Source: Spartobacteria bacterium
GTDB taxonomy: Bacteria; Verrucomicrobiota; Verrucomicrobiia; Chthoniobacterales; UBA10450
NCBI GenBank assembly: GCA_003134785.1
Contig: PLCN01000014.1
Coordinates: 1-64,000, forward strand
Reading direction: 5' to 3'
DNA length: 64,000 nucleotides
Shown here: piece by piece, positions 23-20,235 of the stretch
Numbering within the stretch: the first letter of the stretch is position 1
Layout of the letters: each line of letters begins with the position of its first letter
Notes under the pieces: model-generated
What the model was told of the DNA's origin: nothing
Seen by the model: the letters and a program-made list of their open reading frames with translations, nothing else
The model's database searches: none
Program-made: the position numbers and the translations under genes

Positions 23-134
23 CGATGGAGCGAACGGCCACCCGCTTTACGTTCGCTTCTCACATGACTAACCCCCTTTCACTTCGACCGACGCGCGGTC
101 CCCGTGGCCGTCGCTCATCTCTTTCTCGTTAGGC
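23..134 (+). other. attC recombination site 1 (integron)
   Basis: The right core box GTTAGGC is at 128-134. The segment at 24-41 pairs with 104-119 once one G and one A are left unpaired, which is the extrahelical-base signature of integron attC sites. A weak left box is near 66-72. The site belongs to a cassette upstream of the window, so the array continues leftward. Its GTCGCTGA/TCGTTAGGC-type end resembles the other attC sites in the array. Confidence 0.7.
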
Positions 135-148
135 CACTACACACACTT

Positions 149-670
149 ATGAGCATATTCGGAAGACCAAAGAAGACGCCACCATCAGGCGATGAGATTC
201 GCACCATAGAGAAGGAATTCGAGACCAAGTGGCGCATCGGCGCAAGGACTGCCGTGTTAATCGTTCGACTGACGAGTCGGTTTAGGTCAGAGATTTCGTT
301 GTCGGCCGGTGAGGACACAGTTAATGCCAAGAGTACGGTGGATGTAATGATATTTCAATCGACAGCGGACAGTGAGAACACGCGACACGGCCCATCAACG
401 GCCGGTTTTGCTTCGTTGCGTGACACCGGCCTAAAGGCTGGTTCACGCATCAGGGTCACCGCGCGAGGCCCAGACGCAGCCGCCGCGATGGACGCCCTAT
501 CGGAGTTGTTTTCATGCGGCGCACGCATTGACCTGTGTATTGAGCCGGGCTGTCCCTCGCCTCCGATACTCAATGGCTACACGCCAGACATTATCCATTA
601 CGCTTGTTCAAATGGCCACGCCTGGACAGTGCGTCGCAGCGATGCGAGCAAGGTCCAACCAGACGCTTGA
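149..670 (+). CDS. cassette gene: HPr-like domain protein lacking the phospho-accepting His
   Basis: This 173-aa protein has a central region (about residues 28-115) that aligns with the PTS phosphocarrier HPr: an R-I-G-A-R-T-A segment where HPr has G-I-H-A-R-P-A, then an N-A-K-S segment at the HPr regulatory-Ser position, and an A-G-S-R-I-R-V-T-A-R-G-P-D-A stretch typical of the HPr C-terminal half. The catalytic His is Gly, so canonical phosphotransfer is not expected. About 25 extra residues interrupt the domain. The C-terminal tail holds four Cys and a His in a C-x4-C...C-x3-H layout that could bind metal. I chose ATG 149, just after attC 1, over the GTG at 104 because the latter lies inside the attC. 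The stop overlaps attC 2. The HPr relationship is my own alignment by eye; the function is unknown. Confidence 0.6.
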   Translation: MSIFGRPKKTPPSGDEIRTIEKEFETKWRIGARTAVLIVRLTSRFRSEISLSAGEDTVNAKSTVDVMIFQSTADSENTRHGPSTAGFASLRDTGLKAGSRIRVTARGPDAAAAMDALSELFSCGARIDLCIEPGCPSPPILNGYTPDIIHYACSNGHAWTVRRSDASKVQPDA

Positions 671-1743: not shown

Positions 1744-2304
1744 ATGAAGATCTCTTTTCCATCCGAGCGTCCAGATGGTCACGCGCCATGCGTTTGGCAT
1801 GTTCAACAACTGTTACTGCAAGCAGTGGAGTCGCTTCTTGGGCCTCGCGAAGGGCGTTACACAATTTGCCAACCGAGATTTCTGACGACTGATGGCCAAC
1901 CTCACATCTGGAGCAACGCCGACCAGGCCGGTGCGTACCTCAGCACAGCATCAGCGGGTTATTGGCCGACGCTTGTGTACGAGCTTGCTCATGAAACCGT
2001 ACACCTGTTGAATCCCGTCGTGGGCTCCACGAACTTACTTGAGGAGGGAGTCGCAGTCGCTTTCTCCGTCTCTCAATCCGCATTGCTGACAGATCACCCA
2101 CAGCGCCCCTCCCCAACAGATAAGCGATATGTGACCGCACATTCGTTAGTTGAGGGTCTTCCAGGAGGCGCCTTCCCGGCCGGCCGCTTAGTCCGAGAGC
2201 GCTTTGGTGCTCTGGGTCGTCTGACACAGCCTCAGCTTGAATCGCTCTTTCCTGCTGTTGGTGCGTCAGTGCTAACCAAGCTTGCAGCTCATGATGTGCC
2301 GTAA
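1744..2304 (+). CDS. cassette gene: putative HExxH zinc metallopeptidase-like protein
   Basis: This 186-aa protein carries an L-A-H-E-T-V-H-L-L segment around residues 82-90, a match to the HExxH zinc-binding motif. An L-L-E-E-G-V-A segment about 15 residues later could supply the third ligand (Glu), as in gluzincin-type peptidases. No signal peptide or membrane segment is seen, so it would be cytoplasmic. It starts at ATG 1744, seven bases after the GTTAGGC of attC 3, a typical cassette spacing, and ends just before another RYYYAAC box. The family was not identified. Peptidase activity is an inference from the motif alone. Confidence 0.55.
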   Translation: MKISFPSERPDGHAPCVWHVQQLLLQAVESLLGPREGRYTICQPRFLTTDGQPHIWSNADQAGAYLSTASAGYWPTLVYELAHETVHLLNPVVGSTNLLEEGVAVAFSVSQSALLTDHPQRPSPTDKRYVTAHSLVEGLPGGAFPAGRLVRERFGALGRLTQPQLESLFPAVGASVLTKLAAHDVP

Positions 2305-2307
2305 TGG

Positions 2308-2341
2308 GCCTAACCCCTATGTAGGGAGTCAAGCGTGGATG
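2308..2341 (+). other. partial attC-like site (left half)
   Basis: The box GCCTAAC (2308-2314) is followed by a CCCTATGTAGGG palindrome-like run. The first 34 bp match 4868-4901 with only two differences. No GTTRRRY partner is close; the transposase remnant begins just downstream. It may be the left half of an attC split by an insertion. Confidence 0.5.
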
Positions 2342-2363
2342 CAGGGTATGGGTTGGTTCTAGT

Positions 2364-2798
2364 TCATTGGTTTTGGGTTGGTAAGTGGTTTGAGTTAATC
2401 TTGGAGACGCCTCCTCTTCCTTTTGCTCGTTGGGTTTTGTGTTTCCAGCCCCGAAAGCTTTCGGGGTGCATGCGGCCACTGCCGGAGCGCAAATTGACTC
2501 CGAAAGCTTTCGCGAGTTGATCAATGCGATCGGTGGAAGAGGAACTGGGGGAGCGTTTCTGCTTGAGCCTGGCCGCCCAGCTCAAGAACGCCTCCTTTTT
2601 GAAGCGCTGCGCCGGCTTCGGGTTGCCTCCTCCTTCCTGCACCACCACCACGTAAAACTCCTGGTGCACATCGATTCCAAGCTTGATCGTTGCCTTGCCC
2701 GGATTAAACTCCGAGCGGGTTTCCTCGAGTGAGGACGACTCTACCTTTATGGTATTATTCATATTGTCGGGTGTAGGTCCCAAACCCGCATCCGACAA
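2364..2798 (-). pseudogene. remnant of an IS110/IS1111-family transposase gene
   Basis: Read on the - strand from ATG 2798, residues about 37-78 give K-L-G-I-D-V-H-Q-E-F-Y-V-V-V-V and a K-K-E-A-F-L-S-W-A-A-R-L segment. These are characteristic of the N terminus of IS110-type DEDD transposases; the D of G-I-D-V-H is the first catalytic Asp. Homology stops after about 75 residues and the rest of the frame is unrelated, low-complexity sequence containing two CCGAAAGCTTTCG palindromes. A full transposase has well over 300 residues, so this is a decayed fragment. It sits between a half attC and a full attC, which fits the IS1111-attC group of elements that target cassette attC sites (family knowledge; target use here is inferred). 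Confidence 0.65.
2449..2517. repeat. two CCGAAAGCTTTCGG-type palindromes
   Basis: Positions 2449-2466 are a perfect 18-bp palindrome, CCCCGAAAGCTTTCGGGG. Positions 2497-2517 are an imperfect one built on the same CGAAAGCTTTCG core. The same core forms the loop stem of the attC at 3533-3599, recurs with one change in the attC at 2814-2873 and appears again at 20216-20235. Confidence 0.7.
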
Positions 2799-2813
2799 CT
2801 CCCTTCATGTCAT

Positions 2814-2873
2814 CTAGGCGATGGAGCGAACTCCGAAAGTATTCGGAGTCGCTGATCTTGGGTCTCGTTAGAC
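2814..2873 (+). other. attC recombination site 4 (damaged left box)
   Basis: The right box GTTAGAC is at 2867-2873. The stem GATGGAGCGAACTCCGAA pairs with TTCGGAGTCGCTGATC, leaving the same A unpaired as in other sites of this array. The left box reads ATCTAGGCG where attC 3 has ATCTAACCAGGCG, so four bases (ACCA) appear to be missing. The loop is an ACTCCGAA...TTCGGAGT palindrome. Confidence 0.7.
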
Positions 2874-2888
2874 GCTCGAACACACCCT

Positions 2889-3461
2889 ATGAACAAACAA
2901 CCTAAACCCGAAAAGCTTTCACCAAAACAACGTGAAGAACTACTCAGGGTACTGGAAGCCCGTTTTAAGAAAAACACCAGCCGCCATCAAGGTATTGTAT
3001 GGGCCAAAGTGCAAGCAAAGCTGGAAGCGAACGCCGAAAAACTATGGTCACTTAACGAAATGGAAAGAACCGGCGGCGAACCGGATGTGGTTGGTCATGA
3101 TAAAAAGACGGGCGAATATATCTTTTTCGATTGTTCAGCGGAAAGCCCTGGCGGACGCAGAAGCGTTTGTTACGACCGTGAAGCACTGGATTCCCGGAAA
3201 GAACACAAACCGGAAAATAACGCTGTCGATATGGCAGCAGCCATGGGCATCGAGCTTTTAACAGAAGAACAATATCTGAAGTTACAGAAACTGGGAGATT
3301 TTGATACGAAGACTTCGAGTTGGGTGAAAACACCTCCTGATATTAGAAAACTCGGCGGTGCCCTCTTTGCTGACCGTCGCTACGGCCGTGTCTTCGTGTA
3401 TCAGAACAGTGCGCCCTGCTACTATCGGGTTAGAGGGTTCCGTGGCTCGCTAAAGATTTAA
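2889..3461 (+). CDS. cassette gene: DUF4256 family protein
   Basis: This 190-aa protein matches the DUF4256 family along its length: an S-P-K-Q-R-E-E-L-L start, a W-S-L-N-E-M-E-R-T-G-G-E-P-D-V-V block, D-C-S-A-E-S-P, C-Y-D-R-E-A-L, M-G-I-E-L-L-T-E-E-Q-Y and a G-G-A-L-F/G-R-V-F-V-Y ending. The family has no established biochemical role and is expected to be cytoplasmic. The base composition is clearly more A/T- and A-rich (many AAA and GAA codons) than its neighbours, which points to an outside source. It is bounded by attC 4 and attC 5 and starts at ATG 2889, 15 bases after GTTAGAC. Confidence 0.85.
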   Translation: MNKQPKPEKLSPKQREELLRVLEARFKKNTSRHQGIVWAKVQAKLEANAEKLWSLNEMERTGGEPDVVGHDKKTGEYIFFDCSAESPGGRRSVCYDREALDSRKEHKPENNAVDMAAAMGIELLTEEQYLKLQKLGDFDTKTSSWVKTPPDIRKLGGALFADRRYGRVFVYQNSAPCYYRVRGFRGSLKI

Positions 3462-3532: not shown

Positions 3533-3599
3533 GCCTAACCATGCGCGCTCCAGTGAACTCCGAAAGCTTTCGGAGTCGCTGAGCTCTTTCTCGTAAGGT
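3533..3599 (+). other. attC recombination site 5
   Basis: The left box is GCCTAAC (3533-3539). The right end reads CTCGTAAGGT where others have CTCGTTAGGC, so the right core is degenerate. The top of the hairpin is a perfect 20-bp palindrome (3557-3576), and the lower stem pairs GCTCCAGTGAA with TCGCTGAGCT with bulges. About 70 bp between the DUF4256 stop and this site contain no gene. Confidence 0.65.
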
Positions 3600-4867: not shown

Positions 4868-4911
4868 GCCTAACCCCTACGTAGGGAGTCAAGCGCGGAT
4901 GTAAGTTAGGC
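4868..4911 (+). other. attC-like site 7 (unusually short)
   Basis: GCCTAAC (4868-4874) and GTTAGGC (4905-4911) are exact complements only 44 bp apart. A CCCTACGTAGGG palindrome and AGTCAAGCGCGGATG lie between them. The left 34 bp match the half site at 2308. It lies between two cassette genes where an attC is expected but is shorter than typical sites. Confidence 0.55.
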
Positions 4912-20215: not shown

Positions 20216-20235
20216 CTCCGAAAGCTTTCGAGAGC
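20216..20235. repeat. CGAAAGCTTTCG palindrome outside the cassette array
   Basis: CTCCGAAAGCTTTCGAGAG here shares its core with the palindromes at 2449, 2497 and 3557. It lies between two - strand genes in a 146-bp intergenic space. Confidence 0.6.

What the first reader, a model, noticed from the sequence alone, without database searches (positions are those of the whole stretch)
2308..2873. IS110/IS1111-type remnant lodged in attC sequence
A fragment holding the first catalytic Asp region (G-I-D-V-H) of an IS110-type transposase lies between a left attC half (GCCTAAC at 2308) and a nearly complete attC (core GTTAGAC at 2867) that has lost four bases of its left box. A known group of IS1111 elements inserts specifically into attC sites, so this may be a fossil of such a targeted insertion in an environmental integron.
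Basis: partly seen in the sequence, partly recalled or inferred. Interest (0 to 1): 0.55.

Follow-up and report, generated by a model that had tools for sequence, protein, structure and literature searches.

The report
Gutted jumping gene inside cassette site
A Verrucomicrobiota bacterium carries a 500-base shrunken copy of a mobile DNA element that landed exactly inside the recombination site of an integron gene cassette; both of its ends survive but its enzyme gene and guide RNA are gone, which is mostly ordinary decay of a known kind of element, although some relatives lost only the enzyme gene and kept the guide RNA.

Summary
Window 2316-2815 (minus strand) is not a scrap of transposase. 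It is an internally deleted IS1111-type insertion sequence of 500 bp with both ends intact. It has about 70 codons of tnp, then a deletion of roughly 1 kb that removed the rest of tnp and the predicted guide (seekRNA) region, then about 230 bp of right end. It sits in one attC between GCCTAACC (2308-2315) and AGGCGATGG...GTTAGAC (2816-2873). Joining the flanks gives a 66-nt attC that folds well, so the 'four lost bases' are simply on the other side of the insert. Eleven right-end copies lie in this genome; 9 of 11 abut GTTAG. Longer siblings exist (1.33-1.52 kb). The only full-length tnp frame has SA in place of a serine-glycine pair kept by 14 relatives, so a working helper may be missing. 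Three relatives (G021, G026, G064) carry separate transposase-poor elements of 416-637 bp beside GTTAG, with the guide RNA kept. Predicted guides fit their own insertion sites better than shuffled ones (37 of 50 against 29.7; p about 0.005). It works like the known attC-targeting IS1111 elements, as a distant verrucomicrobial lineage. In-situ decay is the likeliest history.

The parts
2308..2315 (+). attC R'' box GCCTAAC plus C: the part of the target site on the IS right-end side
   Evidence: Sequence; restored attC; GGTTAG (its complement) follows the right end in most copies
2316..2815 (-). 500-bp internally deleted IS1111-type element, both termini intact
   Evidence: ends align with the C3 (1523 bp), C25 (1375 bp) and C4 (1332 bp) copies
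2316..2318 (-). 3 bp (AGG) outside the right subterminal inverted repeat
   Evidence: Sequence; the 7/3-bp offset of IS1111 ends is recalled, not from a call
2319..2329 (-). right subterminal inverted repeat ACTCCCTACAT
   Evidence: Sequence; 10 of 11 positions match the left repeat
2449..2520 (-). pair of REP-like palindromes (CCCCGAAAGCTTTCGGGG at 2449-2466; a CGCGAAAGCTTTCGGAG copy within 2493-2520) in place of the usual right-end hairpin
2547..2558 (-). approximate deletion junction: tnp about codon 69 joined to the right-end noncoding region
   Evidence: Alignments; exact base not resolvable
2559..2762 (-). 5' remnant of the transposase gene (MNNTIKVE...GIDVHQEFYVVVVQ...)
2798..2808 (-). 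left subterminal inverted repeat ATGAAGGGAGT, 7 bp (AGATGAC) from the end
   Evidence: Sequence
2816..2873 (+). rest of the interrupted attC (AGGCGATGGAGCGAAC...GTCGCTGATCTTGGGTCTCGTTAGAC)
   Evidence: shares CTAACCAGGCG across the junction with attC sites near 1610 and 4254
1744..2304 (+). cassette ORF (186 aa, no Pfam family) whose attC is interrupted
2889..3461 (+). next cassette ORF, DUF4256
4868..4911 (-). older footprint: about 30 bp of the same IS right end between GCCTAAC and GTTAGGC, in the last recognisable attC of the array

Best explanation
An IS1111-type insertion sequence recombined precisely into the R'' end of a cassette attC, between CTAACC and AGGCG, with no target duplication. 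The element then lost about 1 kb internally (about 80% of tnp and the whole predicted 80-90-nt seekRNA), most likely in place, leaving both ends in the split attC. Shown by sequence: both termini, the exact insertion point, the deletion, and the recurrence of the same target in sibling copies. Inferred: that insertion was guided by a seekRNA of the kind predicted in the siblings, that the deletion followed insertion, and that the split attC is no longer a normal cassette site. If a working transposase and seekRNA were present in the cell, the leftover ends could in principle still be moved in trans; no such helper is evident in this genome.
For: Ends align with three longer copies in the same genome. 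The restored empty site is a 66-nt attC. In 5 of 5 own-genome left ends and 31 of 34 held left ends the base before AGATGAC is T. Right ends abut GTTAG in 9 of 11 own-genome copies and 27 of 32 held copies. A seekRNA-like hairpin lies downstream of tnp in relatives with conserved GYCTAACC, the complement of the target GGTTAGRC; own flank fits better than shuffled flanks, 37 of 50 against mean 29.65, p 0.005 in 20,000 shuffles (25 of 30 loci used). The seekRNA model finds 4 copies in the genome and none at 2316-2815. Only one copy with this junction was found in the genome. The C3 tnp has SSA where 14 relatives have SG (14 of 15 loci given; in the fifteenth, L070, the pattern hit another place), and C25 and C4 are deleted or frameshifted.
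Against: The copy is a mosaic: left end closest to C3 (91%), last 142 bp closest to C25 (96%), stretch 416-653 of the query 87% to C10:285.8k, so recombination between copies may have produced the deletion. Minis in three other genomes show that short forms recur, so arrival as a mini is possible. One of 11 own right ends (C10:318.6k) has no GTTAG and one (C22) has ATTAG. Five of 32 held right ends lack GTTAG, and left ends on three G042 contig ends have no attC-like flank. The shuffle test ignores relatedness of copies.
Confidence: 0.82

Rival explanations
1. The element arrived in the attC already as a miniature, moved in trans by a full-length relative that supplied transposase and seekRNA.
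For: Both ends are intact and longer than the 84/71-bp ends that sufficed for a mini ISEc11 in trans (PMC11187229, section 11). Transposase-poor elements with both ends occur in G021 (416 bp), G026 (577 bp) and G064 (637 bp). In G020 two loci share one junction next to GGTTAG, although their left end is of another type.
Against: No second copy with this junction was found in the genome or in the 82 other family genomes searched (in one search only 7 candidates per genome were scored). No clearly functional helper in this assembly.
Confidence: 0.25
2. The short form arose by recombination between two IS copies, for instance in neighbouring cassettes, deleting what lay between.
For: Left and right halves match different siblings best. 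The REP-like palindrome region is shared with other right-end copies.
Against: tnp joined to the noncoding region needs an unequal, non-homologous junction; the attC flanks restore one clean site, as expected for a single insertion.
Confidence: 0.2
3. Chance resemblance or plain transposase debris next to an attC, unrelated to targeting.
For: Pfam does not recognise the window ORF.
Against: Both termini and the target are shared by many copies.
Confidence: 0.01

Closest known systems
IS1111-attC elements (ISKpn4, ISPst6, ISPa21, ISPa25; [quoted passage not shown]
   Same: IS1111-type transposase in the siblings, subterminal inverted repeats, insertion at one end of attC, downstream noncoding region with a predicted seekRNA matching the target
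   Different: Found in Verrucomicrobiota. Transposase 24% identical to IS4321 and at most about 35% to the full-length plasmid-borne IS110-type enzymes listed; ISKpn4 and ISPst6 were not compared. The window copy lacks most of tnp and the seekRNA. The two founding papers are not held or not read; they are known here by citation and recall.
Laboratory mini ISEc11 (PMC11187229, section 11 read)
   Same: IS ends without tnp and seekRNA in cis; shown there to move when both are given in trans
   Different: The window copy is natural and sits in an attC; its movement is not shown
Bacterial MITEs (review PMC10969869, passages read)
   Same: Short, transposase-less, ends kept
   Different: Single copy in this genome; subterminal rather than terminal repeats; the G021, G026 and G064 forms keep a predicted guide RNA
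Coxiella QMITE2 (PMC5896051, passages read)
   Same: A short repeat linked with IS1111
   Different: QMITE2 is the target of IS1111, not an IS1111 derivative

Membership tests
IS1111 family | DEDD N-terminal domain plus Transposase_20 C-terminal domain | tested here: inconclusive
   Sibling C3: both domains. Window copy: only the first ~70 codons, no Pfam call
IS1111 family | Subterminal inverted repeats | tested here: met
   ATGAAGGGAGT at 2798-2808 and ACTCCCTACAT at 2319-2329, 10 of 11 positions (sequence)
IS1111 family | Long noncoding region downstream of tnp | tested here: met
   C3 copy: about 50 bp upstream, over 350 bp downstream
IS1111 family | GL-P----S(T)G motif (PMC11187229, section 6) | tested here: met
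   14 of 15 relatives given carry GLC..-..SG, two of them (L053, L057) with S for P (L070 not read correctly); the C3 copy has SSA; the motif is deleted in the window copy
IS1111 family | seekRNA in the downstream noncoding region, top-strand match 5' of bottom-strand match | tested here: inconclusive
   Predicted hairpin with GYCTAACC in relatives; bottom-strand segment only judged by eye; absent from the window copy; no RNA data
IS1111-attC group | Insertion at a fixed place in attC without target duplication | tested here: met
IS1111-attC group | Common descent of transposase with ISKpn4/ISPst6 | not tested
   No such sequence was compared
MITE | Transposase-less with both ends | tested here: met
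MITE | Multiple copies with the same internal structure | tested here: not met
   One copy of this junction found

The most novel reading that the evidence does not exclude
In this verrucomicrobial family, attC-targeting IS1111-type elements repeatedly give rise to natural transposase-less miniatures that keep their own guide RNA. These would be RNA-programmed MITEs that borrow only the enzyme and seed integron attC sites. The window copy would be a later stage that has lost the guide as well.
Probability: 0.3. Interest if true: 0.6.

Novelty: new variant of a known kind. Interest (0 to 1): 0.4.

Why it matters
It extends attC-targeting IS1111-type elements to Verrucomicrobiota, with a precise empty-site reconstruction and a guide-to-target fit that can be tested. 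The sister minis that keep the guide RNA but not the enzyme gene offer natural examples for asking whether seekRNA-guided elements can be parasitised in trans. For integrons, the array shows attC sites being split and eroded by such an element: one site split, and one carrying only a 30-bp footprint in the array's last recognisable attC.

Tried and rejected
Rejected: two separate attC remnants (the joined flanks make one attC). Rejected: a lone N-terminal scrap (both ends align). Rejected: that the window copy still carries a seekRNA; the model finds none there. Considered and rejected: one shared deletion behind the window and G026 minis. The tnp-side breakpoints lie close together, but G026 keeps the seekRNA that the window lacks, so the deletions differ.

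Led nowhere: Rfam found no relevant family. RNAalifold gave only a weak consensus (-10.6 kcal/mol, 6 of 19 pairs with two-sided changes, no control run); the single-sequence folds are clearer. Twelve seekRNA-plus-right-end loci without a left end of the usual type were looked at (output partly cut); their left boundaries differ, and I found no rule. Literature: no paper on transposase-less IS110/IS1111 elements that carry a guide RNA appeared in the listings of searches of this open-licence library; that does not cover most subscription journals or preprints.

Full report
What is there. The window is the first 64 kb of contig C9 (277 kb) of a 4.39-Mb, 25-contig genome. From base 1 to about 5.3 kb it is an integron cassette array: ORFs on the plus strand separated by attC-type sites ending in GTTAGRY. 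The finding lies between a 186-aa ORF (1744-2304) and a DUF4256 ORF (2889-3461).

The element. The minus-strand ORF of 144 aa finds long siblings in the same genome: C3:248.6k, C25:338.2k and C4:181.8k. After extracting termini, these copies measure 1523, 1375 and 1332 bp, and the window copy 500 bp, at 2316-2815. All four begin AGATGACATG and end ATAGG. Near the ends lie subterminal repeats, ATGAAGGGAGT and ACTCCCTACAT in the window copy, 7 and 3 bp from the ends. I recall that offset as typical of IS1111; it comes from no call. The window copy keeps about 70 codons of tnp, loses roughly 1 kb, and resumes about 230 bp before the right end. It is mosaic: left part 91% to C3, last 142 bp 96% to C25, and its right half 87% to a right-end-only copy at C10:285.8k.

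The target. On the IS strand the left flank ends CTCCATCGCCT and the right flank begins GGTTAGGC. Joined, they give a 66-nt attC that folds into one hairpin with all seven R'/R'' bases paired. Two other attC sites of this array share CTAACCAGGCG across that point.

Recurrence. A 139-bp right-end query has 11 matches in the genome and a 107-bp left-end query has 5. GTTAG directly follows 9 of 11 right ends; the exceptions are C22 (ATTAG) and C10:318.6k (none). In all held loci, the base before the left end is T in 31 of 34, and GTTAG lies in the first 8 bases after 27 of 32 right ends (33 rows, one being a palindrome read backwards). These loci were found by homology to the element, so they are not a random sample, but the flanks were not used to find them. 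In the 8 genus genomes there are 13 left-end and 22 right-end hits. At window 4868-4911 about 30 bp of right end remain between GCCTAAC and GTTAGGC in the last recognisable attC of the array. I recall that Tetu and Holmes described degenerate IS footprints at array ends; that paper is not held.

Relatives. In genome contigs, 23 loci encode relatives: 22 come from records titled as Verrucomicrobia(-ota), Spartobacteria or Chthoniobacterales MAGs and one from a MAG titled Acidobacteria. Two of their contig lengths equal those of G021:C8 and C25 (palsa_1379), and one equals that of G020:C17 (palsa_1414); I infer identity from that. Against plasmids, listed hits reach about 35% identity over most of the protein, and IS4321-type enzymes 24%.

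Guide RNA. Downstream of tnp the relatives share an 89-101-nt segment that folds into a long stem with a loop holding GYCTAACCTG (14 sequences). GYCTAACC is the complement of GGTTAGRC, the right half of the target. The IS1111 seekRNAs of PMC11187229 (sections 6, 8, 9, 11 and 13 read, plus a term search) are 82-96 nt, lie downstream of tnp, and match both target strands. A covariance model gives 32 matches in 17 of 83 family genomes, four of them in this genome (C3, C25, C4, C10) and none in the window copy. Using 25 of 30 fetched loci (dropped: L149 no right end; L138 no guide found; L134, L150 and L155 flank without GTTA), the two variable guide bases pair Watson-Crick with the element's own flank in 37 of 50 cases, against a mean of 29.65 for shuffled flanks, p about 0.005. 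Relatedness among copies is not controlled. No RNA has been observed.

Other short forms. Three elements with both ends and only a tnp remnant, each next to GTTAG, occur in G026 (577 bp), G021 (416 bp) and G064 (637 bp, with a degenerate right end). All three keep the predicted seekRNA (82, 94 and 66 bits). Of 30 fetched seekRNA loci, 14 have a left end within reach, 3 of these at miniature spacing. Five of the 17 genomes with a seekRNA match have no tnp match at E 1e-10 (G024, G039, G053, G064, G071), though several are incomplete assemblies. In G020, two loci share an 86% identical unit of about 550 bp with an identical junction between the start of another IS110-type gene and this seekRNA plus right end, beside GGTTAGCC and GGTTAGAC. 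Their left flanks are not clearly attC, so I treat them as suggestive only.

Is it alive? The C3 copy has the only full-length tnp frame in the genome, but its motif reads GLCPGEYSSAK where 14 relatives have SG (15 given, L070 not read correctly). C25 lacks a stretch near the 3' end of tnp and C4 is frameshifted and deleted. An integron integrase lies at C10:4543-5484 (TIGR02249, 464.9 bits) and contains an in-frame TGA, read as two ORFs of 102 and 218 aa. Both the IS and the integron therefore look partly decayed, although sequencing or assembly error cannot be excluded.

Verdict. What is added is that it is a both-ended internal deletion in a single, otherwise complete attC, in a genome with many such insertions. 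The open and more novel question is whether the guide-keeping minis of sister genomes move on a borrowed enzyme. The literature searches named in Tried and rejected listed no report of that, within the limits of the library.

Noticed in passing
window 2493-2520, 2449-2466, 3558-3575, 2831-2848, 20216-20233: REP-like palindrome around CGAAAGCTTTCG; the roughly 28-bp form in the IS right end matches, mostly at 91-100%, places in about 26 of the 82 other family genomes (counted by eye; five of those places read). It also forms the apex of two attC hairpins here.
   Followed up: partly
L043 4489-5496 (G000:C10): Integron integrase split by an in-frame TGA near a contig end, with minus-strand cassette-like ORFs leading to the contig end; possibly continuous with the array at window 1.
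   Followed up: partly
L147 about 1242-1788 and L153 (G020:C32, G020:C9): Two copies of a chimeric transposase-less unit: left end and gene start of another IS110-type element (LGLDVHKE) joined to this family's seekRNA and right end, same junction at both loci.
   Followed up: partly
L044 end (G000:C16:1-23), L146, L123: The second left-end type (CTAGACCTTATGGCTG) occurs in other genomes; in G000:C16 it abuts GCATAAC, the complement of a GTTATGC cassette start, so this second IS may also target cassette boundaries.
   Followed up: no
L130, L135, L139, L141, L142, L146, L147, L150, L152, L153, L154, L155: Twelve loci have seekRNA plus right end but no left end of the AGATGACATG type; right ends outnumber left ends (22 against 13 in the genus).
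   Followed up: partly
window 104-670: Cassette-borne ORF with an HPr-like (PTS-HPr) domain.
   Followed up: no
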